From NCBI RefSeq assembly GCF_016097555.1, contig NC_054703.1:7820461-7884460 (forward strand): DNA of 64,000 bases. Direction: 5' to 3'. This document shows, in pieces, positions 1,758 through 50,400 of this stretch. Made by a program: the position numbers and the translations under genes. The DNA is from Gigantopelta aegis. Its lineage: Eukaryota > Mollusca > Gastropoda > Neomphalida > Peltospiridae. The notes under the pieces were generated by a model, which saw only the letters and a list, made by a program, of their open reading frames with translations, did not search any database and was not told the DNA's origin. Numbering within the stretch: the first letter of the stretch is position 1; each line of letters starts with the position of its first letter.

Positions 1758-3323
1758 CTAATCACGTTTCGTCACGTAATCACTAATCGTGGTTTGTTTA
1801 CTTAGCGTTGGACGCATAACTTCTAATGCCGAGTCAATGTCCGCAATGCTGTCAAATACTGGCAATCGAATATCTCCTTTGCTCTGAAAAAACAGTCTGA
1901 CTGTCTCGAGTGCCTTGTGCGTTTCAACTGCTGTGGGCATTGGCTGTTCGGGTGGCTCCTGTGTATCGTCCTCTGGTTCAGAATCACTGTGGCCGTCTCG
2001 TTTTCCGATAATCTCTGAAACGATGTCGTCATCTGTCAGCTGTTCGGTGATTACAAATCGCTCGTCTGCAGTGAGATAATCTTCCAGAGTGACACCATCT
2101 GGCACTGGCATGGCTCTCACGAGTTCATTCCACACTGTCTGTAGATTTGCTAACGGGGTGCTGTCGTCTTCGTCGTCAGAACTCTCAGAACACGCAGCAC
2201 TTTTGAACCCACCCTTTGCAAAACAGTTCACGATACACGATGAGGTCACGTGACGCCAAGCACGATGGGCTGTGTTGATTGCCGTCAAGATGGAAACTGA
2301 GTGCTCCTGTTGACTGTCGAATGCCTTGATGATGTCACTCATCATCTCTCGTCGATAGTTCACTTTTACGTTTGCGATTATTCCCTGGTCCATCGGCTGG
2401 ATTTTCGAGGTAGTGTTCGGGGGCAAAAAAGCCAGTGTTATACTGGTTAATCCGGAAACTTTCGGATGCGCTGGACAGTTGTCGACTAGTAAAAGGATTT
2501 TTCTTTTTTGCCTTTTCATGCTCTTGTCTAGATCTTTCACCCATTCTGTAAACAATGCTCCCGTCATCCACGCTTTCTTGTTTGATCTGTAGTCCACTGG
2601 TAAACTTCGCACATTCTTGAAGCACCTGGGTTTTGCCGATTTCCCTATCACCAATAACTTTAACTTTTCGGTACTGGTCATGTTGGCAGTGACAAGCAGT
2701 GTTATTCGATCTTTTGATTTCTTGCCGCCGTGACACTGTTCTCCTTTCAGTTGAAGCGTTCTTTGAGGAACAAGTTTGTAGAACAGTCCTGTTTCGTCTG
2801 CGTTGAAAATATCTTTTGGATGAAACACGGCAAGGTAATTTGGAAGTTGTGAAGTCAGCAAGTTATCAACAACCAAATGGTCTACTGCGGCACTTTCACC
2901 ATGCATAGCTTTGGAAATAATTCCCCGTCTTTGTTTAAAACGTTCTACCCATGCATTGTTTGCCTTAAAATTCACATGGCCAAGTTTGGCTGCCAGTTCG
3001 TCCGCTTTTTGCATAAGTAGTGGTCCACTCAAGGCGATGTTTTTATTGCGTGCTGACTTGAACCACAAAAAGAGAGCATCATCGACATCTTGAAATTCGA
3101 ACGAGCGAATTCGTTTTCTAGCTGTGTTGAATTCTGAAGATTGACATTTTGATAAAATCGTTTCCCTCTGTTTCAAGATGGTACTGAGAGTGGATTTGGG
3201 AATCCCGAACTCAGCTGCTATGTCTTTCTTTGATTTTTGTCCGAGATCAACAGCTGCAACGATTTGAAATTTCACATCTAGATCGAGCGCTTTTTTTTTG
3301 CGTGATGTTTTCGTGTCCGTCAT
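1758..3323 (-). CDS. Tigger/pogo-family transposase with C-terminal PIP-box-like motif
   Basis: The 521-residue protein is a DNA cut-and-paste transposase acting on the TIRs of its own element. An N-terminal psq/CENP-B-like helix-turn-helix (about 10-55, with the IPKSTLSTIL helix) is followed by a CENP-B DNA-binding HTH (about 70-140) and a DDE_1 catalytic domain. The acidic triad is visible as D176 (NADETGLF), D281 (LLVDNCPAH) and D312 (QPMDQG), spacing as in pogo/Tigger enzymes. An acidic linker and a C-terminal Q510-x-x-I-x-x-Y-V end follow, close to the PCNA-binding PIP box known in Drosophila pogo transposase. An upstream in-frame ATG at 3380 would add 19 hydrophobic residues; 3323 is preferred because the conserved HTH begins just after it. 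No stop or frameshift is present, so the gene may still be functional. Confidence 0.92.
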   Translation of the reverse strand: MTDTKTSRKKKALDLDVKFQIVAAVDLGQKSKKDIAAEFGIPKSTLSTILKQRETILSKCQSSEFNTARKRIRSFEFQDVDDALFLWFKSARNKNIALSGPLLMQKADELAAKLGHVNFKANNAWVERFKQRRGIISKAMHGESAAVDHLVVDNLLTSQLPNYLAVFHPKDIFNADETGLFYKLVPQRTLQLKGEQCHGGKKSKDRITLLVTANMTSTEKLKLLVIGKSAKPRCFKNVRSLPVDYRSNKKAWMTGALFTEWVKDLDKSMKRQKRKILLLVDNCPAHPKVSGLTSITLAFLPPNTTSKIQPMDQGIIANVKVNYRREMMSDIIKAFDSQQEHSVSILTAINTAHRAWRHVTSSCIVNCFAKGGFKSAACSESSDDEDDSTPLANLQTVWNELVRAMPVPDGVTLEDYLTADERFVITEQLTDDDIVSEIIGKRDGHSDSEPEDDTQEPPEQPMPTAVETHKALETVRLFFQSKGDIRLPVFDSIADIDSALEVMRPTLSKQTTISDYVTKRD

Positions 3324-3853
3324 GATTGCATACTGAACGAAAAACTGACACGGATTTATAACAAACAAAGAGAATCCCATTAATTACCGCTGATTAATAT
3401 CATTGTATATATATATTGAGTTGAACGTGTCAGACTGTTTTTGGAGTATGGTTGATCTCACGGCTCAGCTGTCCGTTAACACTGATTGGTTTGATACGTA
3501 ACGGTTCCGGTATAATTAGTGACTTAATCCCTTAATTGATACCTGTTCCCAAGTCCAGACAAACAAAAGTTATTTAGGCTGTTGTTTTAGTGCGGTCGTG
3601 CGGTCGATCCCACGGCTTTGCAGCGTTTTACACTGATTGGTTTGATACGTAATGCTTCCGGTATTCACGGTTCGTTATGTAAACACTTATTTACACTGGA
3701 ATTAACTATTTGGGACCACAAAATTGGTTCGTTTTAACAGTTAATTCGCTATACATAGTTCGTTCTATACATTAAAATGTATTACTAATATATAGGGGAG
3801 AAAATCGGGACTTTACAATCAGTTCGTTCTAACCGGTAGTTTGTTATAAGCGT

Positions 3854-5330: not shown

Positions 5331-5681
5331 CTGAAATTATGTTTAATGATTCATAACAATTATAAATTATGTTTCATTATTTATATATAATAATGTAAAA
5401 CACAAAAGATTATAATTATTAAAATTATTATTATAAAATGTTTTAAAAGACTGCATTACTTGCTTAAATGGAGTTGTCTTTCTTATATAGTTACTGAACA
5501 AAGTCACAACAGACTGACTTAAATATATATTAACTTGACATGCTGTAAGGTATATTATTTGTAACGTTATTGGTATAAATAATTTTATAATATTTTAAAA
5601 CAACATACGAACTTGTAAGGTTCCGTATTTACATGGCACAATATCCTTGTCTCCATAAGTGAAAGTTGTTCCAGAACTTTA
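5331..5681. other. AT-rich spacer, nothing recognised
   Basis: Very AT-rich with short ATTATT runs. No open frame or repeat family was recognised. Confidence 0.4.
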
Positions 5682-5750
5682 CCTGCGCGTGCTGTAACCT
5701 CACCGTGGTGCAGGGGTGTAACATTCTCTTTCAGAATGGCCATACAGCAC
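5682..5750 (+). ncRNA. HDV-like self-cleaving ribozyme (slightly 5'-truncated)
   Basis: P1 CCTGC/GCAGG, P2 GTGCTGTA with ATACAGCAC, P3 ACC/GGT, P4 CATTCTC-type hairpin with one mismatch (tTCtttCaGAATG). J4/2 reads GGCCA, one A shorter than in the other copies. The two leading C residues of P1 are absent. Confidence 0.6.
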
Positions 5751-5949
5751 AAATTGAAATTTTGAGTAAAAGTCAGTATCTATTGCTGATATTTGTATTT
5801 TTGCACAGTTCTTTACACTGTGTTTTTACTTAAATCTTGAATTTTTATATTAATGTTGATCATTACTTTATTTGTTTGCATTACCATAGTTTGACACCCA
5901 ATAGCCGATGTATTTTTCGTGTTGGGGTGTCGTTAAAACATTCATTCAT
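5682..5949 (+). mobile_element. Short non-autonomous LINE derivative (ribozyme head plus LINE 3' tail), copy A
   Basis: The first ~69 bases are the 5' head of the window's RNase H-bearing LINE. A ~28-base inverted piece of the end of LINE ORF2 follows, then the LINE 3' UTR from the GTGATATTTG block to the GACACCC/GGGTGTC stem and a short ATTC tail. No coding capacity remains. The 5' end lacks the first two C residues of the head. No convincing target duplication was found. Confidence 0.75.
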
Positions 5950-7505: not shown

Positions 7506-7587
7506 TAAGTTAAATCAATTTGTGCACAAAGGCACAATGGCAGGGGACTTTACTTGGTTTTAATTGTATGCATTAATAAATGTACTA

Positions 7588-7659
7588 CCCCTGCGTGTGC
7601 TGTAACCTCACCGTGGTGCAGGGGTGTAACATTCTCTTTGAGAATGGCCAATACAGCAC
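7588..7659 (+). ncRNA. HDV-like self-cleaving ribozyme
   Basis: Full 72-nt fold: P1 CCCCTGC/GCAGGGG, P2 GTGCTGTA/TACAGCAC, P3 ACC/GGT closing a 7-nt loop, P4 CATTCTC-TTT-GAGAATG, J4/2 GCCAA with a candidate catalytic C. The inserted element begins at the first base of P1. Confidence 0.8.
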
Positions 7660-8008
7660 AAAATTGAAGTTTTGAGTAAAATTCAGTATCCGTAAAATTC
7701 TGTGATATTTGTGTTTTTGCACAGTTCTTAGCACTGTTTTTGTTGAAGTCTTGAATTTTTGTATTGATGTTGATCATCACTTTATTTATTTGCATTGCCA
7801 TGGTTTGGCACCCGTTGGCCGGTGTATTTTTTGTGCTGGGGTGTCGTTGAGCGTTCATTCATTCATTCATTCATTCATTCGTTTATTTAACTGTTGAATT
7901 TTTATACTAATGTTGATCATCACATTGGGTTTGCATTTACCATAGTTTGACACCCAATAGCCGATGTATTTTTCGTGCTGGTGTGTTGTTAAACATTCAT
8001 TCATTCGA
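7588..8008 (+). mobile_element. Non-autonomous LINE derivative with two consecutive tails, copy B
   Basis: A 14-bp target duplication TAATAAATGTACTA lies at 7574-7587 and 8009-8022. Between them are the ribozyme head, the inverted ORF2-end piece, a LINE 3' tail ending in (ATTC)n at about 7880, then a second 3' tail module that starts at TTTATTTAACTG and ends at 8008. Because one duplication flanks both tails, they were inserted together or the second tail was added without its own duplication. Confidence 0.85.
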
Positions 8009-11235: not shown

Positions 11236-11307
11236 CCCCTGCGTGCGCATTAAACTCACCGTGGTGCAGGGGTGAACATTATTTTAAAGAATGGCCAATA
11301 AATGCAC
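11236..11307 (+). ncRNA. HDV-like ribozyme, variant P2
   Basis: P1 CCCCTGC/GCAGGGG is intact. P2 is GCATT/AATGC, different in sequence from the GTGCTGTA/TACAGCAC copies but still paired. P4 is weaker (CATTaTTTTAAaGAATG). J4/2 GGCCAA is kept. Confidence 0.65.
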
Positions 11308-11739
11308 AACTCCTCGTATGAGGCACCTTGTTTGCCGTGAGGTGCGACCCGTGAAAATGGATGATGGGATCCTGGTGATTGAGTTGGGGCATACCTGCGG
11401 GTTTGACTTCTGGCAATACATCACTTTGGCCCGGAGTTCATATAGACGGGTGGTCAGGGAGGCCCGACCTGATCAATCGGCTGGTCATGCCAAGCTCTAG
11501 AGCAAACGACCTTTGTTTTGTTTATATAGCCAAGAACAAACATTGTTTTAATTACCTTTTGTATTTGTTGCTCTTAGGGCGGTGGCTAGGGTCAATCGGG
11601 TGATTTATTTTTTATTGCCTGAGTATATCAATCATGTATCCCTGGCATGAATGTCTGCTGGTTATCCGCAGCGTCATGTCCCCTTGTTGGACTCCGTGGT
11701 GGGTGGGGACATGGTTGATGAACATTTGCGCTTATAATT

Positions 11740-13121: not shown

Positions 13122-13193
13122 CCCCTGCGTTTGCATTAACCTCACCGTGGTGCAGGGGTGAACATTCTTTTATAGAATGGCCAATAAATGCAC
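13122..13193 (+). ncRNA. HDV-like ribozyme, variant P2
   Basis: P1 CCCCTGC/GCAGGGG; P2 TGCATT/AATGCA; P3 ACC/GGT; P4 CATTCT/AGAATG; J4/2 GGCCAA. The P2 sequence differs from copy 2 on both strands of the stem, i.e. covariation. Confidence 0.78.
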
Positions 13194-13631
13194 AACTCCT
13201 CGTATGAGGCACCTTGTTTGCCGTGAGGTGCGACCCGTGAAAATGGATGATGGGATCCTGGTGATTGAGTCGGGGCATACCTGCGGGTATGACTTCTGAC
13301 AATACATCACTTTGGCCTGGAGTTCAAATAGACGGGCGGTCAGGGAGGCCCGACCTGATCAATCGGCTGGTCATGCCAATCTCGAGAGCAAAAAACCTTT
13401 GTTTTGTTTATTTTAGCCAAGAACAAACATTGTTTTATTTACCTTTTGTATTTGTTGCTCTTGGGGCGGTGGCTTGGGTCAATTGGGTGATTTATTTTTG
13501 TTTATTGCCCAAGTATATTAACCATGTATCCCTGGCATGGATGTCTGCTGGTTATCCGCAGCACCATGTCCCCTTGTTGGACTCGGTGGTGGGTGGGGAG
13601 CATGGTTGATGAATTAACACTCCATACTAAC

Positions 13632-17900: not shown

Positions 17901-18340
17901 GCTGAAGTTTGGGCAGTCATTAAAGTCTTGGAACAAATTAAAGATTCCGTAGCATCCAGATTTATTATTTTTACAGACTCACTTTCGTGTCTTCAAGCTT
18001 TACGAAATATGAAGGTGGACCATCCCTTAATTGGGATTGTTATACGAAAGTGTGTCTTTTTATCTATTGCCAAAAAAGATGTTGTATTTTGTTGGGTGCC
18101 CAGCCATGTTGACATCAGGGGTAATGAAAAGGCAGATTCAGCTGCCAAGTCTGCTTTGCATTTGCCTCATGCCAGGGTTGGTGTACCTTATACTGATTTT
18201 AAAAATAATATCAACAAATTTATCTTTTTGATTGGCAACGTGATTGGGACGGTGAGGTTGCGAGTGGCAGTCCTCCTATAGACAGTGCAGGAAGGATGAA
18301 ATAGTATTGTATTGTATCATGCCCGCATCGGTCACACTTA
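14938..18340 (+). pseudogene. LINE copy 1 ORF2 (endonuclease, RT, RNase H), inactivated
   Basis: The APE-type endonuclease is readable (WNC, QET, GDFNGQHT, GSDHFP) and the RT domain carries FFDLEKAYD and YVDDF. Lesions seen: a TAG for CAG at about 16813 (after DIHP), a ~22-base deletion near 17625 that ends the frame, a TGA in the RNase H YTDGS motif (about 17806), and a ~36-base deletion near 18265. The C-terminal part continues after copy 2 at 24032. Copy 2 carries a seven-base deletion relative to this copy near 22735, so each copy is broken in different places. Confidence 0.9.
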
Positions 18341-18412
18341 CCCCTGCGTGTGCTGTAACCTCACCGTGGTGCAGGGGTGTAACATTCTCTTTGAGAATGG
18401 CCAATACAGCAC
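18341..18412 (+). ncRNA. HDV-like self-cleaving ribozyme at LINE 5' end
   Basis: All helices are perfect: P1 CCCCTGC/GCAGGGG, P2 GTGCTGTA/TACAGCAC, P3 ACC/GGT with loop TCACCGT, P4 CATTCTC/GAGAATG with a TTT loop, J4/2 GCCAA. The inserted element starts at the first P1 base, the position where such ribozymes cleave. The likely role is to release the element RNA from upstream transcript and possibly help translation start, as known for R2 and related elements. Confidence 0.85.
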
Positions 18413-18844
18413 AAATCCCCTTTTGGGGCACCTTGTTGGCCGTGAGGTGCATCCCGTAATGCTGGATGATGGGATCCTGGTGGTTGAGTTGGGGGCATAT
18501 CTGCGGGTATGTTGTCTGGCAACACACCACTTTGGCCTGGAGTTCAGCCAGACGGGTGGTCAGGAAGGCCCGACCTGATTAATCGGCTGGTCATGCCAAG
18601 CTCTAGAGCAAACAACCTTTGTTTTGTTTATATAGCCAAGAAAAAACATTGTTTTAATTACCTTTTGTATTTGTTGCTCTTAGTGCGGTGGCTAGGGTCA
18701 ATCAGGTGATTAATTTTTTCTTGCCTGAGTATATCAACCATGTATCCCTGGCATGAGTGCCTGCTGGTTATCCGCAGCATCATGTCCCCTTGTTGGACTT
18801 CGTGGTGGGTGGGGGCATGGTTGATGAACCATTTGATTTCTAAT

Positions 18845-20146
18845 ATGGATATTAACCAATCTCAATCTTTTGATGGGACCCTGAAAAGGGTCCACACCGA
18901 AGTTTCAGATTCTTCATCATCTGATGAAGAATCTAAGTCTTTGAATGTTAAGAAATCCAAAGTGATTTCTTTGAAAACCTGGCCAAGGTTTCTCGTCATC
19001 GGTTCTTCCGATGAAGGGGCCTTGAAAAAACTGTCGCCCTTAGCAATTCAGAAAGGGCTCGAAGGCTTGGCCGGAGAGCCCAAAACTGTCAAGAAATTGA
19101 GGAATGGCTCATTGTTGGTTGAATGTTCAAGAGAGAGTCATTCCAAAAATCTTCTTAAATCTAAAATGATATGCAACATTTCTATCATTGTGAGTCCTCA
19201 CGCTACTCTAAATTCATCTAAAGGAGTAGTTCGATCTCGGGATTTGGAAGGAGTTAGTGAGGATGAGATTTGCGAAAATCTCTCTTCACAAGGGGTTACA
19301 TCAGTCAAGCGGATTAAGGTTCGTCGGAATAATGAACTTGTGCCGACAAACACCTTGATCCTGTCATTCAATGTGCCTACACTTCCATCTTCAGTTAAAG
19401 CAGGTTACCTGAATATACCAGTTGTACCTTACATCCCCAACCCTTTACGGTGTTTCAAATGTCAAAAGTTTGGACACGGACAGAATACATGTCGCAACAG
19501 ATTGACATGTGCTCGTTGTGGTCAGTTTGACCATGATAGCAAGACATGTCAGAATGATATGATATGTACCAATTGTAAAGGGAAACACTTTGCGTACTCG
19601 CGAGAGTGCCCAAAGTGGAAAGTGGAAAAACAGGTGCAGCAGGTCAAGGTAGAAAAGCGCCTGACTTTCATTGATGCTAGAAAACTTGTAGAGTCTTCGA
19701 CAAATGTGGTATTAGGTAAATCATATGCCACGGCTGTCAAGGTTTCTACAACGAGTATAGCTACTCAAACTGATTTAACTTGGCCCAACAGTGAGGATAC
19801 ATTTAAGAAGATTTCTCATCCAAAAGATGTCAAAAAACAGACTGTTCATAAACAAGTTTCAACATCTACTCAAGTGTCTTTGGATTCTAGGAATCCATCA
19901 AGAGGCTCATCGCCTGGGGAGCCAGGTCCCAGTAAGCCTCCGTCAAGAAAAGACACCAAAAAGCAGCATAAGGATTCTTCTTCAGGACGACTGAAGAAAG
20001 CTGAAAAAAAGTTGGTTTCGACCAACAATCCATTTGAAGCTTTGGCTGATGTGGATGATCAAATGGATATAGTGCCAGATGACCGTCCACACCCACAGAG
20101 ATCTCATAAGCCAAAGATAACTCCTGTACTTCCCCCTAATGACTAA
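18845..20146 (+). CDS. LINE copy 2 ORF1 protein, intact
   Basis: A 433-residue gag-like RNA-binding protein. It has an N-terminal Ser/Asp/Glu-rich stretch (21-30), an RRM-like region about 46-195 (WPRFLVIGSSDEG, SEDEICENLSSQGV, KRIKVRRNNEL), and three zinc knuckles at C203-C216 (CX2CX4HX4C), C222-C235 (same spacing) and C241-C255 (CX2CX3HX6C). A basic, Ser/Pro-rich tail with GRLKKAEKKL and PVLPPND at the end follows. The start at 18845 is favoured because the longer frame from 18740 covers 5' UTR shared as DNA by every copy. Its stop overlaps the ORF2 start in ATGACTAA, suggesting coupled termination and reinitiation. Confidence 0.92.
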   Translation: MDINQSQSFDGTLKRVHTEVSDSSSSDEESKSLNVKKSKVISLKTWPRFLVIGSSDEGALKKLSPLAIQKGLEGLAGEPKTVKKLRNGSLLVECSRESHSKNLLKSKMICNISIIVSPHATLNSSKGVVRSRDLEGVSEDEICENLSSQGVTSVKRIKVRRNNELVPTNTLILSFNVPTLPSSVKAGYLNIPVVPYIPNPLRCFKCQKFGHGQNTCRNRLTCARCGQFDHDSKTCQNDMICTNCKGKHFAYSRECPKWKVEKQVQQVKVEKRLTFIDARKLVESSTNVVLGKSYATAVKVSTTSIATQTDLTWPNSEDTFKKISHPKDVKKQTVHKQVSTSTQVSLDSRNPSRGSSPGEPGPSKPPSRKDTKKQHKDSSSGRLKKAEKKLVSTNNPFEALADVDDQMDIVPDDRPHPQRSHKPKITPVLPPND

Positions 20147-23100
20147 TTCAGTCATTCAGTGGAACTGCCGTGGGCTTAGGCCCAATTTTGATGAATTAAG
20201 TCTTTTAATTCAAAAACATAATCCTCTTGCAGTGTGTCTTCAGGAAACGTTCTTGAAGGACACTGATCATATTACCATGAGAGGATTTAACCTCTATCAT
20301 AAGTTTCATGAAACTGAAAATAGAGCATCTGGGGGTGTTTCCATTCTTGTTAATGAAAACATTCCTCAGAGTATAGTAGCTTTAACTACAAATTTACAAG
20401 CTGTGGCTGTAAAGGTCACGGCTCATAAAACTATAACTCTGTGTTCAGTTTATTTACCTCCTCGAAACCATTTTAATTTTAATTCTAGAGATCTTCAAGA
20501 TCTCATTAACCAGCTTCCTACTCCCTTTATTATTATGGGAGATTTTAATGGTCACCACACTTTGTGGGGATGCGAGGATATCAATATTAGAGGTAAACAA
20601 TTGGAAGACTTAATTCTCAAAAACGACTTACTTTTATTTAATGATAAAAGTCGTACATATTTTCATTCTGCAAGTGGATCTTTCACTTCCATAGATTTAA
20701 CTCTTTGTAGTCCATCACTTTTTCTTGATTTCTCCTGGAAAGTTGGTTCAGACCTTTGTGGTAGTGACCACTTTCCCATTATTTTGGAGAATGATGGACC
20801 ACCATCACTTGAAAGGGTTCAAAGGTGGAAGTTGGCGAAGGCAAATTGGGGTCAGTTTCAGCATCTGTGCAGCACTCGTCTGCAACAATTTGCCATTACT
20901 GATGCTGATGATCCCATGTCTTTGTTCACTTCCATCTTGAAGGACATTGCAGATGAAACTATTCCTAAGACTTCGGCAGTACCAAAGCGTTTCAGTAAAC
21001 CATGGTTTAATGATACGTGCAAAAATGCATTCAAAGAGCGAAACAGGTTGCTTGAGCGGTTCAAACGTGAACCTACAGCAGACAACCTGGATGCATTTCG
21101 TATTGCTAGGGCTAAGGCTCGCAGAGAGATTAGACAGAGTAAGAAAACATCTTGGAGAACTTTTGTCTCCAAGTTAAATTCACAAACATCAGTAAAATCT
21201 GTCTGGAATAGGATCCGTAAAATCAAAGGTAAAGAATCCAGTAATACAGTTCATCATTTGTCTGTCAATGATACGGATGTCACGTCTCATCGTGACATTG
21301 CTAATGCATTGGCAGACAACTTTTCTCATAACTCATCTTCTGCTTTCAGTACAGATGCTTTTACATCTGTCAGAACTAAAGCTGAAAAGCAGTCCATTAA
21401 TTTTTCATCTGAAAATGCTGAAGTGTACAACATGCGTTTCTCTATGGAGGAATTGCAGGATGCTCTTCGTAGAGCCCATGATACTTCAGTAGGTCCAGAT
21501 GAAATTCATTATCAGTTATTAAAACATTTACCTGAATCATCTTTGATGGTTCTTTTGAATATTTTTAATAACATCTGGATTTCTGGTGACTTTCCTTCTG
21601 ATTGGAGGAAAGCTATTATCATTCCTATTCCCAAGCCTGGTAAGGATCCAACCAATCCTACTAGTTATCGCCCTATCGCTTTGACAAGTTGCATTTGTAA
21701 AACCATGGAACGCATGATCAATCGTAGACTTGTCTGGTATCTTGAATCTCACAAATTGCTCACTAACGTGCAATGTGGGTTCAGATCTAGACGTAGCACG
21801 GTTGATCATCTTCTTAGATTTGAAACGTTTTGTAGGGAAGCTTTCATCCATAATCAGCACTTGGTTTCAGTGTTTTTTTTTGATTTGGAGAAAGCTTACG
21901 ATACCACGTGGAAGTATGGGATTTTAAACGACCTCCATGGCATGGGCCTAAGAGGTCGACTTCCAGTTTTTATATCTCAGTTTTTAAGAGATAGATCTTT
22001 TAAAGTCCGGGTGGGGTCGACTTTGTCCGACATTCACCCACAGGAGATGGGTGTGCCTCAAGGTAGTATCCTGTCTGTAACTCTATTTTCTGTGAAAATT
22101 AACAGCATCACCCAGTGTTTAACACCTGGTGTCGATTGCTCGTTATATGTCGATGATTTTCAGATTTGCTATAGATCGTCCAATATGAGTATCATTGAAC
22201 GTAAGTTGCAGCTTTGTTTGAATAAACTTCATCAATGGGCAACTGACAATGGCTTTAGATTCTCAAAGGCAAAAACGGTTTGTATGCATATCTGCCAGAA
22301 AAGAGGTCTTCACTTAGATCCACAGTTGTTTTTGGACAAAAATCCAATTCCAGTTGTGGAGGAGACTAAATGTCTGGGGGTTATATTTGACAGGAAGCTA
22401 TCTTTTGTGCCCCATCTTAAATATGTTAAAAAGAAGGGCTTAAAAGCTCTCAATATTTTAAAAGTTATTGGTAATACGGAATGGGGAGCAGACCGCAAGG
22501 TTATGCTCCGTCTGTATAGATCTCTTGTGAGGTCTAAACTTGATTATGGATGCATTGTGTATGGGTCGGCACGCAAGTCTTACTTGCAGATGCTAGATCC
22601 TATACACAATCAGGGACTTAGGCTTTGTCTTGGTGCGTTTAGAACATCACCTGTAGAGAGCTTGTACGTTGATGCACACGAACCCTGTTTGGGTGCTAGA
22701 CGTGCAAAGCTTTCTCTGCAGTATGCTGCCAAGATTAACCAACACATCCAGCTCATGATGCTGTGTTTGACAACAAATATATGAAGTTGTTTGATGCAAG
22801 GCTAAATGCTATTCGTACATTTGGTCTTCGCATTAAGCGTTTTTTGTCGCTTTCCAACATTGATTTAACTGACACTTTGGAAACTCCTTCATATTTTGTT
22901 TTACCACCATGGTGTATTACACCACCTAAAATTGTGTTTCATCTGGCGCATCTGAAGAAAGATCGTACAGATGCTGTAGTTTATAAACAATTGTTCATGG
23001 AAATTCAGGACAAGTACCGTGATTACATTCCTGTGTATACAGATGGATCACGGGATGGGAATTCTGTGGCTTGTGCTACAGTTTTTCCATCAGACACAAT

Positions 23101-23827
23101 ACTTTCCATGCGACTACCTGACTCAGCATCGATCTTTAGTGCTGAAGTTTGGGCAGTCATTAAAGCCTTAGAAGAAATAAAGGATTCTAGTGCATCCAAA
23201 TTTATTATTTTTACTGACTCACTTTCTTGTCTCCAAGCTTTACGTAATATGAAGCTGGACCATCCCTTAATTAGGATGGTGATACGAAAGTGTGTCTTTT
23301 TATCTATTGGTAATAAAGACATTGTATTTTGTTGGGTACCCAGCCATGTTGGCATCAGGGGTAATGAAAAGGCAGATTTAGCTGCCAAGTCTGCTTTGGA
23401 TTTGCCTCATGCCAGGGTTGGTGTACCGTATACTGATTTTAAATATGGTATTAACAAATTTATCTTTTCGATTTGGCAACGTGATTGGGACGGTGAGGTT
23501 GCGAACAAGCTTCATGCTATCAAGCCAGTCTTGGGAGAGTGGCAGTCCTCCTATAGACGGTGCAGGAAGGATGAAATAGTCTTGTGTCGTGCCCGCATCG
23601 GTCACACTTACTTAACCCATTCATTTATCTTGAAGAAAGATCCTCCACCTCAGTGTGAGCACTGCCAGTGTCTTCTGACTGTGCGACACATTTTGGTGGA
23701 GTGTAAGCAGTTGTCAGAAACTCGAAAAGATATATTTGGACAAAGAAATGTGATGGAATCATTTCGATTCCATCCAGAACTTTTATTGCAGTTTTTACGA
23801 GATACTGAATTTTATTCTAAATTTTAA
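20139..23827 (+). pseudogene. LINE copy 2 ORF2: APE endonuclease, reverse transcriptase, RNase H, Zn knuckle (one frameshift)
   Basis: This would carry out target-primed reverse transcription in the nucleus. Endonuclease residues: N9, E36, D135 and N137 (GDFNGHH), and S209-D210-H211. The RT runs about 490-750 with D582 (FFFDLEKAYD) and Y670-V-D-D673. The frame breaks near 22735 because seven bases present in copy 1 are missing. It continues from 22763 with RNase H acids D94 (YTDGS), E128, D152 (TDSLSCL) and D205 (GNEKAD), numbered in that frame, then a C-terminal C-x2-C...H-x4-C knuckle (CEHCQC, RHILVEC). A one-codon expansion in a T run gives an extra Phe before D582. RNase H plus APE places it in the I superfamily, I/Ingi-like. 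Confidence 0.93.
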
Positions 23828-24019
23828 TTATATCTATCTGTGATATTTGTACTTTTACACAGTCCTTTACACTGTGTTTTTATTTAATTGTTGAATTTTT
23901 ATATTGATGATGATCATCACACTTTTCTTGCATTTTACCATAGTTTGACACCCAATAGCCGATGTATTTTTCGTGCTGGGGTGTCGTTAAACATTCATTC
24001 ATTCATTCATTCATTCATT

Positions 24020-26949: not shown

Positions 26950-28033
26950 ATAAGAAAATGGAGTACATTTTTAATTCCACTGATATATACGATGGTGCTA
27001 ATTTATAAATGACATTTAGAAGCGTAATTGGTAGCCAAAAAAGATTTTGGTTTATTACCTTTTGGTAACCAGGTTATTACATCAAGTTTCTGGGTAATGG
27101 ATAATTCACCATTTATAAAGGCATGTATTTTTTTGTTGCTTATTTTTTGTATTCTTTAGTACACTCGATTACTCTTATTCTCCTGCGCGTGCTGTAACCT
27201 CACCGTGGTGCAGGGGTGTAACATTCTCTTTGAGATGATGCTGGATGATGGGAACCTGAGTTGGGGACATATCTGCGGATATGTTTTCTGGCAACACACT
27301 ACTTTGGCCTGGAGTTCAGCCAGACGGCGGGTGGTCAGGGAGGCCCGACCTGATTAACCGCCTGGTCACCCCAAGCTCGAGAGCATGCAACCCTTTGATT
27401 TGTTTATATAGTAAAGAACAAACATTGTTTGATGTACTTTTTGTATGTGTTGCTCTTGGGGCGGTGGCTAGGGTCAGTTGGGTGACTTATTGTTTCTTTA
27501 TTGCCCAAGTATATCAACCATGTATCCTTATTGCCCAAGTATATCAACCATGTATCCCTGGCATGGCTGCCTGCTGATTATCCGCAGCACCAAATCCCCT
27601 CGTTGGACTCGGTGGTGGGTGGGGGCATGGTTGATGAAATTATAGATTCATGGATCCAAATAAAGATATACCTTTTGATGGGACCCTGAAAAGGGTCCAC
27701 ACCGAAGTTGCGGATTCTTCGTCATCTGAATGTTACAATTAAGAGGTCCAGAGTAGGGTCTTCTGAATCCTGGATTCAAATGAAGGAGCCTTGGGCAAAC
27801 TTTCACCGTTTGCTATTCAGAAAGGTCTGGTTGGTTTGGCTAGTGAGCCAAAAAATGTAAAACAATTGAGGAATAGTTCATTGTTAGTAGAATGTTCCAA
27901 AGAGAGTCATTCAAAGTGTCTCCTGAAGTCAACATTCCTCTGCAAAGTACCTATTACAGTGACAGCTCATAGTACCCTAAATTCATCTAAAGGTGTCATC
28001 AGATGTCGAGATTTGGCAGGAGTTGGTGAAGAA

Positions 28034-28329
28034 TGAATGAATGAATGAATGAATTAATGTTTAACGACACCCCAGCACGACAAATACATCGGCTATTGGC
28101 TGTCAAACTATGGTAATGCAAATAAATAAAGTGATGATCAACATCAATATAAAAATTCAAGGTTTAAACAAAAACAGTGTAAAGAACTGTGCAAAAATAC
28201 AAATACAAATATCACAGAATTTTACGGACACCGAATTTTACTCTAAACTTCAATTTGTGCTGTATTGGCAATTCTCAAAGAGAATGTTACATCCCTGCAC
28301 CACGGTGAGGTTACAGCACGCGCAGGGGA
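28034..28329 (-). mobile_element. Non-autonomous LINE derivative, copy C (reverse orientation)
   Basis: Flanked by GAGTTGGTGAAGAA at 28020-28033 and 28330-28343. On the minus strand it reads ribozyme head, inverted ORF2-end piece, 3' UTR, stem-loop, ATTC repeats. One extra T precedes P1. Confidence 0.92.
28257..28328 (-). ncRNA. HDV-like ribozyme
   Basis: P1 CCCCTGC with GCAGGGA (one mismatch), P2 GTGCTGTA/TACAGCAC, P4 CATTCTC hairpin with one flanking change, J4/2 GCCAA. Confidence 0.7.
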
Positions 28330-33695: not shown

Positions 33696-33862
33696 GGGGA
33701 CATTCCTGAGTTTTCTGCATTGTAAGATGTTTCCGACTAATAAAATATTTCTACATATTAAATATAATTTCTTGTTTAGAATATCAGTGTCTGTATATTC
33801 AATATGTTTCTGGTCGTCTTATTATTTGTAAGAAGCCCAAACTGGACTTTGTAAATAATTTT

Positions 33863-34215
33863 CCCCTCACCGTGGTGCAGGGGAGTACCATTCTCTTTGA
33901 GAATGGCTAATGTAGCACAAATAAATTTTGAGTAAAAGTCAGTATCTATCTGTGATATTTGTGTTTTTGCACGGTTCTTTACACTGTGTTTTGTTTAAAT
34001 CTTGAATTTTTATATTGATGTTGATCATCACTTTATTTGTTTGCATTATCATAGTTTGACACCCAATAGCCGATATATTTTTCGTGCTGGGGTGTCGTTA
34101 AACATTCATTCATTCATTCATTCATTCATTATTTGTTTTCATTATGATAGTTTGACACCCAATAGCCGATGTATTGTTCGTGCTGGGGTGTCGTTAAACA
34201 TTCATTCATTCATTC
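33863..34215 (+). mobile_element. Non-autonomous LINE derivative with two tails, copy D
   Basis: Flanked by AAATAATTTT at 33853-33862 and 34216-34225. It starts CCCCT but lacks the P1/P2 interior (deleted from CCCCT to CTCACC), so the ribozyme is dead. P4 is kept. Two consecutive 3' stem-loop tails end near 34130 and 34215. Confidence 0.88.
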
Positions 34216-36980: not shown

Positions 36981-37052
36981 CCCCTGCGTGTGCTGTAACC
37001 TCACCGTGGTGCAGGAGTGTAACATTCTCTTTGAGAATGGCCAATACAGCAC
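36981..37052 (+). ncRNA. HDV-like ribozyme
   Basis: 72 nt with P1 CCCCTGC/GCAGGAG (one mismatch), perfect P2 and P4, J4/2 GCCAA. The target duplication ends directly before P1. Confidence 0.75.
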
Positions 37053-37275
37053 AAAATTGAAGTTTTGAATAAGATTCAGTATCCGTAAAATTCTGTGATA
37101 TTTGTGTTTTTGCACAGTTCTTTACACTGTTTTTGTTTAAGTCTTGAATTTTTATATTGATGTTGATCATTACTTTATTTATTTGCATTACCATAGTTTG
37201 ACACCCAATAGCCGATGTATTTTTCGTGCTGGGGTGTCGTTAAACATTCATTCATTCATTCATTCATTCATTCAT
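36981..37275 (+). mobile_element. Non-autonomous LINE derivative, copy E
   Basis: Flanked by TCCTTTCGATTC at 36969-36980 and 37276-37287. It begins exactly at CCCCTGC. Head, inverted ORF2-end piece, 3' UTR, stem-loop, (ATTC)n. Confidence 0.93.
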
Positions 37276-40519: not shown

Positions 40520-41470
40520 GCCCTGACCCCTATGATTTGATTGGGGACTCGCTCGTTTTACGGCCCTAGCCTGACAAGGTTTTTTGGTTAATATCTCTGG
40601 CTGTACTACCTCTTGGTAGATCTCCTCGCTCGTTTTACGGCCCTAGCCTGACAAGGCTTTTTTGGTTAATATCTCTGGGTGTACTACCTCTTGGTAGATC
40701 TCCTCGCTCGTTTTACGGCCCTAGCCTGACAAGGCTTTTTTGGTTAATATCTCTGGGTGTACTACCTCTTGGTAGATCTCCTCGCTCGTTTTACGGCCCT
40801 AGTCTGACAAAGTTGTTTTGGTTAATATCTCTGGCTGTACTACCTCTTGGTAGATCTCCTCGCTCGTTTTACGGCCCTAGTCTGACAAGGTTGTTTTGGT
40901 TAATATCTCTGGGTGTACTACCTCTTGGTAGATCTCCTCGCTCGTTTTACGGCCCTAGTCTGACAAAGTTGTTTTGGTTAATATCTCTGGGTGTACTACC
41001 TCTTGGTAGATCTCCTCGATCGTTTTACGGCCCTAGTCTGACAAGGTTGTTTTGGTTAATATCTCTGGGTGTACTACCTCTTGGTAGATCTCCTCGCTCG
41101 TTTTACGGCCCTAGTCTGACAAGGTTGTTTTGGTTAATATCTCTGGGTGTACTACCTCTTGGTAGATCTCCTCGCTCGTTTTACGGCCCTAGTCTGACAA
41201 GGTTGTTTTGGTTAATATCTCTGGGTGTACTACCTCTTGGTAGATCTCCTCGCTCGTTTTACGGCCCTTGTCTGACAAGGTTGTTTTGGTTAATATCTCT
41301 GGCTGTACTACCTCTTGGTAGATCTCCTCGCTCGTTTTACGGCCCTAGTCTGACACGGTTGTTTTGGTTAATATCTCTGGGTGTACTACCTCTTGGTAGA
41401 TCTCCGCGCTCGTTTTACGGCCCTAGCCTGACAAGGCTTTTTGGTTAATATCTCTGGGTGTACTACCTCG
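40520..41470 (+). repeat. 78-bp tandem repeat, about 12 copies, with an open frame
   Basis: The unit holds CTCGCTCGTTTTACGGCCCT, AGTCTGACAAGGTTGTTTTG, GTTAATATCTCTGGGTGTAC and TACCTCTTGGTAGAT. Since 78 is a multiple of three, eight units keep one frame open from 40813 to 41448, giving a 26-residue repeat (FWLISLGVLPLGRSPRSFYG and PSLTRL). Early units differ in length and break the frame. Confidence 0.92.
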
Positions 41471-43885: not shown

Positions 43886-44164
43886 GTTAAAAGGTGAACG
43901 CCCGATGAGCAGTCGGTCTAGGATCGATTCCGGTCGGTGGACCAATTTGGCTATTTCTCCTTCCAGCCAGTGCATCAGTACTGCATCATGGTATGTGCTA
44001 TTTTGTCTGTGGTATAGAGAATATAAAAGATTCTTTGCTACTAATAAAAATGATGTAACGGGTTTCCTCTCTGAGACTAAAACAAATTGTACGAACACAA
44101 GATCCCTTGCTACTAATGGGGAAATGTAGCGGCTTTCCTCTCTAAGAATATATGTTGAAATTAC
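43886..44164 (+). mobile_element. SINE fragment leading into the SINE-tail satellite
   Basis: Head-derived GCAGTCGGTCTAGGATCGAT and body CCAGCCAGTGCATCAGTACT, with an internal partial duplication of the CCTTGCTACTAAT block. It runs straight into the first satellite unit. Confidence 0.75.
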
Positions 44165-45565
44165 CAAATGTTTGATATCCAATAGCCGATGATTAATAAA
44201 TCATGGTGGCGTCGTTAAACAAAATACATTTTTAAATATGTCAGAGTTACCAAATGTTTGACATCCAATAGCCGATAATTAATAATGTGCTCTAGTGGTG
44301 TCGTTAAACAAAACAAACTTTTAACTATGTCAGAGTTACCAAATGTTTGATATCCAATAGCCGATAATTAATAATGTGCTCTAGTGGTGTCGTTAAACAA
44401 AATAAACTTTTAACTATGTCAGAGTTACCAAATGTTTGACATCCAATAGCCGATAATTAATAATGTGCTCTAGTGGTGTCGTTAAACAAAACAAACTTTT
44501 AACTATGTCAGAGTTACCAAATGTTTGATATCCAATAGCCGATAATTCATAATGTGCTCTAGTGGTGTCGTTAAACAAAACAAACTTTTAACTATGTCAG
44601 AGTTACCAAATGTTTGACATCCAATAGCCGATAATTAATAATGTGCTCTAGTGGTATCGTTAAACAAAACAGACTTTTAACTATGTCAGAGTTACCAAAT
44701 GTTTGATATCCAATAGCCGATAATTAATAATGTGCTCTAGTGGTGTCGTTAAACAAAATACATTTTTAACTATGTCAAGAGTTACCAAATGTTTGACATC
44801 CAATAGCCGATAATTAATAATGTGCTCTAGTGGTGTCGTTAAACAAAACAAACTTTTAACTATGTCAGTTACCAAATGTTTGATATCCAATAGCCGATAA
44901 TTCATAATGTGCTCTAGTGGTGTCGTTAAACAAAACAAACTTTTAACTATGTCAGAGTTACCAAATGTTTGACATCCAATAGCCGATAATTAATAATGTG
45001 CTCTAGTGGTGTCGTTAAACAAAACAAATTTTTAACTATGTCAGAGTTACCAAATGTTTGATATCCAATAGCCGATAATTCATAATGTGCTCTAGTGGTA
45101 TCGTTAAACAAAACAGACTTTTAACTATGTCAGAGTTACCAAATGATTGACATCCAATAGCCGATAATTAATAATGTGCTCTAGTGGTATCGTTAAACAA
45201 AACAGACTTTTAACTATGTCAGTTACCAAATGTTTGATATCCAATAGCCGATAATTAATAATGTGCTCTAGTGGTGTCGTTAAACAAAATAAACTTTTAA
45301 CTATGTCAGAGTTACCAAATGTTTGACATCCAATAGCCGATAATTAATAATGTGCTCTAGTGGTGTCGTTAAACAAAATACACTTTTAACTATGTCAGAG
45401 TTACCAAATGTTTGATATCCAATAGCCGATAATTAATAATGTGCTCTAGTGGTGTCGTTAAACAAAATAAACTTTTAACTATGTCAGAGTTACCAAATGT
45501 TTGACATCCAATAGCCGATAATTAATCATATGCTCTAGTGGTGTCGTTAAACAAAACAGACTTTA
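44165..45565 (+). repeat. 89-bp SINE-tail satellite with strict two-unit alternation
   Basis: Sixteen units, each CAATAGCCGATAATTAATAA, GTGCTCTAGTGGTGTCGTTA, AACAAAAC, then ACTATGTCAGAGTTACC. Units alternate TTTGATATCC and TTTGACATCC without exception, so the true period is about 178 bp. The unit is the 3' end of a SINE. Confidence 0.93.
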
Positions 45566-47479: not shown

Positions 47480-50400
47480 ATGAAGATCGTTCTGTGGTTT
47501 GTGATGGCTGCTTTGTACTGCTGTCCAGCGTTTGGTGGAAACTGCGACGGATTCTGGGGCAGGATTGACAAAACGTTATCGACCTATCCAGGTATATAAT
47601 ATACTCAACACAATTAATTAAGGTCGAGTAGACTTTTCATCATCTTTGGTTAGACGAAGTGCAGGCTCATATGAACGATATCCGGACAGACAGACAGACA
47701 GGCAGACAGACAGACAAACATATATCTTTATTTACGTGTTACCTCACGTACGACATAAATACATTTAAAATAAACATATAAAAGTGCATAAGCAATTCCA
47801 TAGGGGGCGGGACGTAGCCAAGTGGTAAAGCGCTCGCACGATGCGCGGTCGGTCTAGGATCGATCCCCGTCGGTGGGCCCATTGGGATATTTCTCGTTTC
47901 AGCCAGTGCACCACGACTGGTATTTCAAAGGTTTTGTTATGTACTACCCTGTCTGTGGGATGGTGTATATAAAAGATCCCTTGTTGCTAATCGAAAACAG
48001 TAGCCCATGAAGTGGCGACAACGTGTTTCCTTTCTCAATATCTGTGTGGCCCTTAACCATATGTCCGACGCCATATGACCGTAAATAATGTGTTGAGTGC
48101 GTCGTTAAATAAAACATTTCTTTCTTTCTTTCTTTCTTTCTTTCCATTCCATAGGGTATTATGAGAGACGATATATACAATAAACAAATATTCACATTCA
48201 TGCTAAATTTAAAAACCAAAGATTTTAATACTAATACATGTACATATGGGTACGTCATCGTAATATTAAAATAAGCTTTTGACAATAAACGAAACATACA
48301 AATTAACCAAAAATATAAAAAAGTCTCTACTTATCTGTAGAGTTAAAAAGTTGGTTTTGGCTGTTACAAAAGCAAGTTTTGGTTCAGACAGTAAAACACA
48401 CATCTTATTAAAATCAGATGAAAGACATAAAATCTTTAAAGGCAACTTGTGCGTGTTGATACAGAATAAAACGGAGGTCTTCGTAAAGGGGGCAGTATGT
48501 AAACACATGCAATTCATCCTCCACACAATGGTTAGGACAAACAGGACATACACGTTCGTGAGCAGGTAAATTTTCATATCTGCCCGTCTCTAATCGAATT
48601 GGTACTACACCACATCGAAACTTCTTTCTTTTTTTTTTTCTTCTTTTTTTTAATCCCACTGCCCCCTTTCCTTTCTCTCCTTTGAATTCCATCTCATTTC
48701 TTCCCGATCTAGCAACAACTCCTATCGTTCAACTTCTTTCACTGTCCCCCTCCACATCCCAGTCCTTATTTCCCCAACCGCGACAGGTGCTTGTCTCTTG
48801 TGGCTATCTGTGCCACACACCTGCCATTCCCCATCAACTTTTAGCTGTGGGCTTAGTCTGACCACTTCGGGGAGTGTCACATCGAAACTTGGCTAGAGAG
48901 CTTCTGTGGTGGCCGGGCATTAACATTTCAACGTATCTTTCAACGCTAAACCAGTTCCTTAAATACGCGATAAGACCTCAGTTTTCCAGTATTGTGGGGG
49001 TGGTGGTGGTGGATGGGGGTGGGTAGGGCACAAACCATCTTTATATATACAGAGTCTGACAAGCCCCCCCCCCCCCCCCCAACCCAGTTCCTACGAGCGT
49101 GTAGTGTCGTATTAGTTTGGCAAGTTTTGTTTTAGTAAAATGTGACCCATGAAATACGCAACAATCTGGATCGTTCGTGCAACTTTAACTTTTCAAGTCA
49201 ATACTATGCGGAGATAACCTTTTATGATCACTGAAGTCAAACATTACTTATATTTTATTGTTTCGAGTATCCATTTCCGTACAACCGAAGTGTTTCTGGT
49301 CATTCTGGTGTTTTTAATACCACAAAATGCATTTTTTTGATATTTTTAAAAACGTACGTGCGTCTTGGAAGTAACGGTTGTGGAGTCGAGTTTAGTCGAT
49401 TTTTAAAGGTATTTCACCGTTTCAATGTAACAGACTTTGTTGTAATGTTATCCAAATGTTTTACAGGTTTGTAAATTAATTTTAATGAACAAAACCGTGT
49501 GTAATATTTTACGGTTTGAAACTAGTGTCTGCGACTTTAAAACAATTTGTTTCAAGACTAATGGTATATAACGACCACTCGTGTAGTATTTTCAAGACAT
49601 TTCGTTTTACCTTTTAGTACCCTACATCTGGTATACAGATCCGGGAAAACTGTGTACAAAAAACAAGATGCATTTCAATAGATTGACCGGCCTCGGTGGC
49701 GTCGTGGTTAGGCCATCGGTCTACAGGCTGGTAGGTACTGGGTTCGGATCCCAGTCGAGGCATGGGATTTTTAATCCAGATACCGACACCAAACCCTGAG
49801 TGAGTGCTCCGCAAGGCTCAATGGGTAGGTGTAAACCACTTGCACCGACCAGTTATCCATAACTGGTTCAACAAAGGCCATGGTTTGTGCTATCCTACCT
49901 GTGGGAAGCGCAAATAAAAGATCCCTTGCTGCTAATCGGAAAGAGTAGCCCATGTAGTGGCGACAGCGGGATTCCTCTCAAAATCTGTGTGGTCCTTAAC
50001 CATATGTCTGACGCCATATAACCGTAAATAAAATGTGTTGAGTGCGTCGTTAAATAAAACATTTCTTTCTTTCTTTGAATAGATTGAGAATGGGCGCGGT
50101 GGTAAAGCATTCGCTTGATGCGCAGTCGGTCTAGGATCGATCCCCGTCGGTGGACCCATTGGGCTATTTTTTGTTCCAGCCAGTGTTCCACAACTTGTGT
50201 AACAAAGGCTGTGATATGTACTATCCTGATGGTGCATATAAAAGATCCACTATGCTAACTGAAAAGAGTAGCCCATGAAGTGGCGACAGCGGGTTTCCTC
50301 TCTCAGTATCTGTGTGGCCCTTAACCATGTATCTGACGCCATATACCCGTAAATACAATGTGTGGAGTGCGTCATTAAATAAAACATATCCTCCCTTGAT

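What the first reader, a model, noticed from the sequence alone, without database searches (positions are those of the whole stretch)
18341..18412. HDV-like self-cleaving ribozyme forms the 5' end of the LINE and its short derivatives
Seen directly: in order, P1 CCCCTGC, P2 GTGCTGTA, P3 ACC, a 7-nt loop, GGT, P1' GCAGGGG, a hairpin CATTCTC/GAGAATG, a GCCAA joint and P2' TACAGCAC. This nested double pseudoknot order, the direct P3'-P1' contact and a C before CAA at J4/2 are the HDV-like hallmarks known from R2, L1Tc and similar elements. P2 covaries: copies 0 and 1 have GCATT/AATGC and TGCATT/AATGCA instead. Seven clear copies lie in this window. The P1.1 contact is not the usual G-C pair pair (AC/GU is the best candidate), which is the weak point.
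Basis: partly seen in the sequence, partly recalled or inferred. Interest (0 to 1): 0.92.

Follow-up and report, generated by a model that had tools for sequence, protein, structure and literature searches.

The report
Self-cutting RNA heads snail retrotransposon
A jumping gene in what is very probably a deep-sea vent snail, and its short derivatives, begin exactly with what looks like a self-cutting RNA of the hepatitis-delta type that would trim the element free from longer transcripts; this is a new host and element for a trick already known from other jumping genes.

Summary
At 18341-18412 (+) all five helices of the HDV-like double pseudoknot pair fully: P1 7/7, P2 8/8, P3 3/3, P1.1 2/2, P4 7/7. 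Rfam's HDV-F-prausnitzii model, which encodes no P2, matches over its full length at 29.5 bits, below its 44-bit cut-off. The 5' end is supported independently: four insertions (one LINE, three short elements) have 12-14 bp target-site duplications that put the boundary at P1 base 1 within 1 nt, three of them nested in other LINE copies. The short elements are ribozyme, an inverted piece of ORF2 of about 36 nt, and LINE 3' UTR. Host probably the snail Gigantopelta aegis. Closest kinds: L1Tc/ingi Pr77 ribozymes with NARTc/RIME, and R2 with its SIDEs. Cleavage was not tested, covariation is thin, the one testable relative lacks the ribozyme, and the genome search did not complete. Verdict: real fold, new member of a known kind.

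The parts
18341..18412 (+). HDV-like ribozyme, whole; predicted cleavage just 5' of 18341
   Evidence: Rfam RF02682 full length, 29.5 bits; R1 108.3 bits, but this copy is in the model; pairs counted
18341..18347 (+). P1 5' strand CCCCTGC
   Evidence: 7/7 pairs with 18371-18377
18350..18357 (+). P2 5' strand GTGCTGTA
   Evidence: 8/8 pairs with 18405-18412
18358..18360 (+). P3 5' strand ACC
   Evidence: 3/3 pairs with 18368-18370
18361..18367 (+). L3 TCACCGT; nt 2-3 (CA, 18362-18363) form P1.1 with 18378-18379 (TG)
   Evidence: 8 of 9 copies keep both P1.1 pairs; L3 identical in 9 of 9
18368..18370 (+). P3' GGT, directly followed by P1'
18371..18377 (+). P1' GCAGGGG
18378..18382 (+). P1.1 3' strand TG and rest of J1/4
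18383..18399 (+). P4 hairpin CATTCTC-TTT-GAGAATG
   Evidence: 7/7 pairs
18400..18404 (+). J4/2 GCCAA with candidate catalytic C at 18401
   Evidence: sequence; role assigned by analogy with HDV-like ribozymes (established knowledge, not tested)
18405..18412 (+). P2' TACAGCAC
18328..18340 (+). 5' copy of target-site duplication TCGGTCACACTTA, inside the RNase H region of the older LINE 13122
   Evidence: 13 nt up to P1, 14 nt with one shared base; second copy from 24019
18341..24018 (+). LINE insertion, ribozyme to (CATT)n tail
   Evidence: TSD and empty-site comparison
18740..20146 (+). LINE ORF1, 468 aa; no Pfam family at 1e-3; three CCHC-like motifs by eye
20139..22784 (+). LINE ORF2 first part: endonuclease and reverse transcriptase
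   Evidence: PF14529, PF03372, PF00078
22763..23827 (+). LINE ORF2 second part, in another frame in this copy: RNase H
   Evidence: PF00075; frames
11236..11310 (+). ribozyme copy of a LINE, type B; P3 AAC/GGT has one mismatch, P4 one mismatch
13122..13196 (+). ribozyme copy of a LINE, type B; P1, P3, P1.1 intact, P2 with one bulged A and one mismatch
27180..27250 (+). ribozyme copy of a LINE, deleted in P4 and beyond
7588..8008 (+). short element, ribozyme identical to the LINE's (72 of 72), with a second 3' UTR end fused behind the first, flanked by TSD TAATAAATGTACTA
36981..37275 (+). short element with ribozyme (one P1 mismatch), nested in a LINE 3' fragment
   Evidence: TSD TCCTTTCGATTC and empty site
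28034..28328 (-). short element with ribozyme (one P1 mismatch), nested antisense in LINE 27180
   Evidence: TSD TTCTTCACCAACTC, one extra base before P1, and empty site
5680..5754 (+). ribozyme copy of an older short element (P1, P4 and J4/2 damaged); no TSD found
33846..33922 (+). degenerate, 5'-damaged ribozyme copy of a short element
7662..7698 (+). linker of the short element: inverted copy of the LINE ORF2 3' end (about 23793-23828)
   Evidence: local alignment score 26 antisense, 9 sense; blastn 86% over 36

Best explanation
The first 72 nt of this LINE and of its short internally deleted derivatives encode an HDV-like self-cleaving ribozyme. When the element is transcribed as part of a longer host RNA, the ribozyme cuts just before its own first base, so the element RNA starts exactly at P1 base 1 whatever lies upstream. 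The element's endonuclease and reverse transcriptase then copy this RNA by target-primed reverse transcription, producing insertions whose 5' boundary is that base. The short elements keep only the ribozyme, a linker and the 3' UTR, and can travel with the LINE machinery because those two ends suffice. Shown: the pairing, its conservation, the 5' junction at P1 base 1 in four insertions, the target-site duplications, and the ends shared between LINE and short elements. Inferred: cleavage chemistry, co-transcript processing in vivo, and mobilisation in trans.
For: Rfam RF02682 matches 18341-18414 over model positions 1-74 of 74, 29.5 bits, E 5.5e-4 for 201 nt. P1.1 CA/UG in 8 of 9 copies, L3 identical in 9 of 9. 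P2 helix length of copy 18341 reached by 13 of 20000 shuffles of its two strands. Strict descriptor: 2 window hits, 0 in 100 shuffles. 90.5% of cells pair, against 29-51% in six slid controls and 4 of 500 shuffles as high; covariation score reached by 9 of 500. Between copies 18341 and 13122, 1 of 37 core columns but 8 of 35 P2/P4/L4/J1/2 columns differ with the bulge register, p 0.013; without it 11 of 35, p 0.0012. Four insertions have TSDs placing the 5' end at P1 base 1 within 1 nt; three have the empty site in other LINE copies. SIDE 7588 is 72/72 identical to LINE 18341 in the ribozyme but 139/172 in the 3' UTR. No tRNA was found in the short elements: the only ARAGORN hit is at 49690-49762.
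Against: No cleavage assay. The Rfam score is below the family's cut-off and the whole window at cut-off gives 0 matches; over 64 kb rather than 201 nt the E-value would be roughly 0.2 (inference). Two-sided changes are few: 3 pairs on the unedited alignment, reached by 29 of 500 shuffles, further pair types by 255 of 500, and one of the three is a register effect. P2 alone is not unusual in the type B copies (1694 and 1966 of 20000 shuffles). Pseudoknot-free folding of 75 nt of copy 18341 prefers a P2-closed alternative (P1 probability 0.06), which such folding cannot settle. The one relative with a full 5' UTR (Solemya, L002) shows no such ribozyme. Four of seven whole-order copies have a mismatch in P1 or P3. 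In four of eight insertions tested no clear TSD was found. Loose descriptors also match shuffled DNA.
Confidence: 0.86

Rival explanations
1. [quoted passage not shown] The fold may be inactive or secondary.
For: CGTG lies at +25 to +28, the place of the downstream promoter element reported for L1Tc Pr77 (PMC4748587 section 5); it is kept in 9 of 9 copies (L3 CGT plus P3' G). The short elements have no tRNA-like head.
Against: The same letters belong to L3/P3' of the fold: they occur in the bacterial RF02682 consensus and in the conserved R2 ribozyme stretch CCUCCUCGUGG quoted in PMC5035012. A promoter does not require the five-helix pseudoknot or P2 pairing in both LINE types. The two functions are not exclusive: both are reported for Pr77.
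Confidence: 0.08
2. The block is a structural RNA element with the HDV topology but without catalysis, for example a 5' signal bound by the element's proteins or used in translation.
For: For R2 the 5' pseudoknot region is reported to be bound by the R2 protein and a role as IRES is suggested (PMC8256844 passages).
Against: The core (L3, P3, P1.1, P1, J4/2) is better conserved than P2 and P4, as expected for an active site, and the block begins exactly at the insertion boundary.
Confidence: 0.04
3. The order of helices is a chance arrangement in a repeated sequence, inherited by all copies.
For: All copies descend from one sequence, so nine copies are not nine tests; covariation is weak.
Against: Rfam's independent model hits over its full length; 0 of 100 shuffled windows hold the strict arrangement; coincidence with the insertion boundary.
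Confidence: 0.02

Closest known systems
L1Tc/ingi-clade Pr77 ribozymes of trypanosomatids (L1TcRz, with NARTc, RIME, SIDER)
   Same: HDV-like ribozyme within the first 77 nt of an endonuclease-RT-RNase H LINE and of its truncated or internally deleted relatives (PMC4035085 sections 3 and 9; PMC4748587). P1 begins with C on the 5' side: the paper's 5' primer begins CCCTGGC, ours CCCCTGC. CGTG at +25 to +28 in both.
   Different: Animal host; a separate ORF1; P1.1 of CA/UG (that of L1Tc was not seen in letters); an (ATTC)n tail; promoter activity unknown. Whether the LINE belongs to the Ingi clade was not tested by a tree.
R2 ribozyme and R2 SIDEs of Drosophila
   Same: 5' HDV-like ribozyme that frees the element from a co-transcript, and short elements made of ribozyme plus 3' end (PMC3414825 passages; PMC3774820 passages and section 16). 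The R2 stretch CCUCCUCGUGG (PMC5035012 passage) and ours CCUCACCGUGG agree in 9 of 11 letters.
   Different: R2 sits in 28S rDNA; here insertions lie in unrelated sequence with 12-14 bp duplications, and the endonuclease is of the Exo_endo_phos type. R2 and HDV ribozymes are reported to differ from the trypanosomatid ones in the orientation of P1 G-C pairs and in P1.1 (PMC4035085 section 9).
HDV-F-prausnitzii ribozyme (Rfam RF02682)
   Same: Best-scoring Rfam model; spans the block with the same P1-P3-L3-P3'-P1'-P4-J4/2 order.
   Different: From a bacterium; our score is below the family cut-off.
drz-agam-1 ribozyme (Rfam RF01787)
   Same: HDV-like by recall; also listed for the block.
   Different: Only 11.8 bits, E 7.6 for 201 nt: not significant.

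Membership tests
HDV-like self-cleaving ribozymes | Nested double pseudoknot order P1-P2-P3-L3-P3'-P1'-P4-J4/2-P2' | tested here: met
   All pairs in copy 18341; 7 of 9 copies keep the order
HDV-like self-cleaving ribozymes | P1' directly after P3', 3-bp P3, about 7-bp P1 | tested here: met
HDV-like self-cleaving ribozymes | P1.1 between L3 and the bases after P1' | tested here: met
   CA/UG in 8 of 9 copies; no covariation in it
HDV-like self-cleaving ribozymes | Catalytic C followed by N-A-A in J4/2 (motif recalled) | tested here: met
   GCCAA in 6 of the 7 whole-order copies; 5680 has lost one A; 33846 has GCTAA; 27180 lacks the region
HDV-like self-cleaving ribozymes | Reaches the curated Rfam cut-off of a known HDV family | tested here: not met
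   29.5 bits against 44; 0 at gathering. Not a defining feature of the fold: HDV-like ribozymes show little primary-sequence conservation (PMC3774820 section 16)
HDV-like self-cleaving ribozymes | Compensatory changes in the helices | tested here: inconclusive
   Two two-sided changes in P2 (bulged register) and one in P4; on the unedited alignment 29 of 500 shuffles reach the count of 3
HDV-like self-cleaving ribozymes | Mg2+-dependent self-cleavage 5' of P1 | not testable with these tools
   needs in vitro transcription
Ribozyme-headed non-LTR retrotransposons | Ribozyme at the exact 5' end of the inserted element | tested here: met
   4 of 8 insertions tested have clear TSDs at P1 base 1 within 1 nt; SIDE 5680 and LINE 13122 gave no repeat, LINE 11236 only 7-nt repeats, LINE 27180 a 9-nt candidate; 33846 not tested
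SIDE-type elements | 5' ribozyme plus 3' end of an autonomous element, no pol III head | tested here: met
   no tRNA in them (other pol III promoters not scanned)
Ingi clade LINE | RT phylogeny within Ingi | not tested
   no reference Ingi protein at hand; PMC11203168 Table 1 counts 59 Ingi and 3 Nimbus sequences in G. aegis
Ingi clade LINE | Endonuclease, RT and RNase H domains | tested here: met
   RNase H in another frame in this copy; not specific to Ingi (Nimbus and others, recalled)

The most novel reading that the evidence does not exclude
The ribozyme is an inherited hallmark of the Ingi clade: a vent snail LINE and trypanosome L1Tc/ingi share a 5' promoter-ribozyme block with C-first P1, CGTG at +25 to +28 and ribozyme-plus-3'-end short partners, so this catalytic 5' end would go back to a common ancestor of the elements in animals and trypanosomes and would have been replaced in some molluscan lineages such as Solemya's.
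Probability: 0.15. Interest if true: 0.72.

Novelty: new member of a known kind. Interest (0 to 1): 0.5.

Why it matters
HDV-like ribozymes at LINE 5' ends are known, but in the listings of six searches of the held library (titles and starts of abstracts, plus passages of the papers opened) I saw none described for a mollusc; subscription papers are mostly not held. Here nested insertions fix the 5' end without any assay and agree with the predicted cut site. It gives a testable case for whether such ribozymes are inherited with a LINE clade or regained, and it shows how a minimal mobile RNA, ribozyme plus 3' UTR, can arise, here with an inverted piece that points to template switching or inversion.

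Tried and rejected
Rejected as chance: the 15.2-bit minus-strand R1 match at 7557-7624, the two snoRNA matches and the COG3943 match, and the non-ribozyme hits of the loose descriptor. In one search the two rows with a 6-nt P1 plus P1.1 read P1.1 one base early for a 7-bp P1, so they say nothing about this ribozyme (2 and 0 window hits; any hit in 57 and 22 of 100 shuffles). (pseudoknot-free folding) was uninformative. No relative was found in viral contigs. The S. velum LINE gave no exact TSD of 8 nt or more in the stretch searched, so its 5' end is unknown; that region gave only four overlapping GT-rich matches at 7702 with a relaxed descriptor. L004 begins inside the 5' UTR and L001 and L003 lack it, so only one of four relatives could be tested. 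Rfam on L002 and L004 5' regions gave no ribozyme. Clade assignment by tree was not possible. Whether LINE 11236 was split by insertion of LINE 13122 or joined to it in another way stayed open: no TSD. A call on PMC8190864 found none of the letter strings asked for.

Full report
Where it is. Four LINE 5' ends carry the ribozyme, of two types by its sequence: A (18341, 27180) and B (13122, 11236). Copies 18341 and 13122 are 87.5% identical over 5.3 kb. ORF2 of copy 18341 holds an Exo_endo_phos-type endonuclease and a reverse transcriptase, and RNase H in another frame. ORF1 has no Pfam family at 1e-3; at E up to 1 only weak matches below their cut-offs. 996 relatives were found in public proteins among the 8000 candidates scored; of the 120 listed, one is named from the limpet Patella caerulea.

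The fold. From 18341 the sequence reads P1 CCCCTGC, GT, P2 GTGCTGTA, P3 ACC, L3 TCACCGT, P3' GGT, P1' GCAGGGG, TGTAA, P4 CATTCTC-TTT-GAGAATG, J4/2 GCCAA, P2' TACAGCAC. Every pair of the five helices forms in this copy. Rfam gives RF02682 at 18341-18414 over its full length with 29.5 bits, E 5.5e-4 for the 201 bases given, under the family's cut-off of 44; at cut-off the whole window gives none. That model carries no P2 pairs, so the 8-bp P2 is separate support; 13 of 20000 shuffles of its two strands reach the same helix length. The Rfam match alone would not be striking across 64 kb. The strict descriptor occurs twice in the window and in 0 of 100 shuffled windows, but its thresholds were set after seeing the sequence; looser forms also match shuffled DNA.

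P1.1. In the usual register the second and third bases of L3 pair with the first two bases after P1'. Here these are CA and TG, two Watson-Crick pairs, kept in 8 of 9 copies; the exception is the degenerate copy 33846.

Copies and conservation. Model R1, trained on these nine copies, finds the 9 in the window and none in four related loci, plus one weak match judged chance. Between copies 18341 and 13122, P1, P3, L3, P1.1, J1/4 and J4/2 differ in 1 of 37 columns, while P2, P4, its loop and J1/2 differ in 11 of 35 on the plain alignment (p 0.0012) or 8 of 35 when the bulged A is taken out (p 0.013); sites are treated as independent. P2 pairs in both types: in each of the two B copies 7 of 8 pairs form with one bulged A, with T-A to A-T and G-C to T-A changes; P4 has one C-G to T-A change in copy 11236. 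On the unedited alignment 90.5% of cells pair (4 of 500 shuffles as high; 29-51% when slid), the covariation score is reached by 9 of 500 shuffles, three pairs change on both sides (29 of 500 shuffles reach that, and one of the three is a register effect), and the number of further pair types is ordinary (255 of 500). Covariation therefore leans towards the fold but does not prove it. Decay is visible: 36981, 28328 and 5680 have one P1 mismatch each and 11236 one P3 mismatch; 28328, 5680, 13122 and 11236 each have one P4 mismatch. Copies 18341, 7588 and 13122 are intact in P1, P3 and P1.1.

The 5' end. Eight insertions were tested for target-site duplications. Four have one of 12-14 bp: 18341, 7588, 36981 and 28328 (minus). 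In 7588 the duplication ends exactly before P1 base 1; in 18341 and 36981 one shared C leaves 1 nt of doubt; in 28328 one extra base lies between. SIDE 5680 and LINE 13122 gave none, LINE 11236 only 7-nt repeats and LINE 27180 a 9-nt candidate. LINE 18341 sits in the RNase H region of LINE 13122, whose sequence resumes at about 24020; 36981 sits in a LINE 3' fragment; 28328 sits antisense in LINE 27180. Joining the flanks without the duplicate gives matches to other LINE copies across the joint: for 36981 240 of 240 bases without a gap; for 28328 gap-free matches of 236 and 228 bases and a third with 2 gap positions; for 18341 a 200-base match from base 42 with 6 gap positions. The predicted cut site and the insertion boundary thus coincide, an agreement that does not depend on the fold.

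Short elements. They consist of the ribozyme, a linker and about 170 nt of the LINE 3' UTR with an (ATTC)n tail; 7588 has a second 3' UTR end fused behind the first. The linker is an inverted copy of the last 36 or so nt of ORF2 (alignment score 26 antisense against 9 sense). No tRNA lies in them; the only ARAGORN hit of the window is at 49690-49762. They are therefore short internally deleted elements that probably arose with a template switch or inversion (inference). Identity to LINE 18341 in the ribozyme is 72/72, 71/72, 69/72 and 67/72 in SIDEs 7588, 36981, 28328 and 5680, against 139/172, 153/171, 144/171 and 147/172 in the 3' UTR, as expected if the ribozyme is under stronger constraint, although a mosaic origin could give the same.

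Relatives. Contigs in bacterial records, probably host-derived, gave four related LINEs. Only L002, in a Solemya velum symbiont record, has a full 5' UTR. Its 5' UTR aligns with the window's from 18425 on, just after the ribozyme, but no HDV-like ribozyme was found before it by Rfam, by R1 or by descriptors (the relaxed form gave four overlapping GT-rich matches taken as chance). Within this wider LINE group the ribozyme is thus not universal, or has changed beyond recognition.

What is known. I read sections 3 and 9 and passages of PMC4035085, section 5 and passages of PMC4748587, section 16 and passages of PMC3774820, passages of PMC3414825, PMC8256844, PMC5035012, PMC7895826 and PMC10294476, and passages and the table section of PMC11203168. 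HDV-like ribozymes that free non-LTR elements from co-transcripts are reported for R2 and L1Tc, and short elements keeping the ribozyme and the 3' end for both. The L1Tc block also acts as an internal promoter with CGTG at +25 to +28; ours has CGTG at the same place, but R2 ribozymes (CCUCCUCGUGG) and RF02682 carry it too, so it is no proof of a promoter or of descent from L1Tc. In the listings and in the passages opened I saw no such ribozyme reported in a mollusc; R2 itself is reported from an oyster, with no word on its ribozyme in the passages seen. Ruminski 2011 and Webb 2009 were not held, so this is not a claim that none is in print.

Verdict. Cleavage is the untested step.

Noticed in passing
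L002 8357-13642: A complete LINE of this group lies in a 537-kb scaffold recorded as the Solemya velum gill symbiont: host contamination or a misjoin is likely; a LINE in a bacterial chromosome would be remarkable.
   Followed up: no
L002 7940-8030: The Solemya LINE 5' UTR carries a different block (GTGTCGTAAGAGGCGACTAAAAGGG) where the snail LINE has its ribozyme; by eye it can form a GTCG/CGAC hairpin with a 7-nt loop and may be another conserved 5' signal.
   Followed up: partly
window 1758-3380: 540-aa transposase ORF with CENP-B_N, HTH_Tnp_Tc5 and DDE_1 domains, a pogo/Tigger-like element by recall.
   Followed up: no
window 44161-45553: Sixteen tandem matches, spaced about 86-90 nt, each to part of the LINE 3' UTR at 75-78%: a satellite perhaps derived from this LINE tail.
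   Followed up: no
window 18413-18430: Directly after the ribozyme LINE 18341, but not the short elements, has a CCCCTTTTGGGG hairpin that could compete with P1; for L1Tc a downstream attenuator absent from NARTc is reported (PMC4035085 section 3). LINE 13122 has CTCCTCGTATGAGG there instead.
   Followed up: partly
window 40813-41448, 53880-54407 and 56643-57119: Long ORFs made of tandem repeats, probably satellites rather than genes.
   Followed up: no
window 49690-49762: A tRNA-like hit of unclear identity.
   Followed up: no
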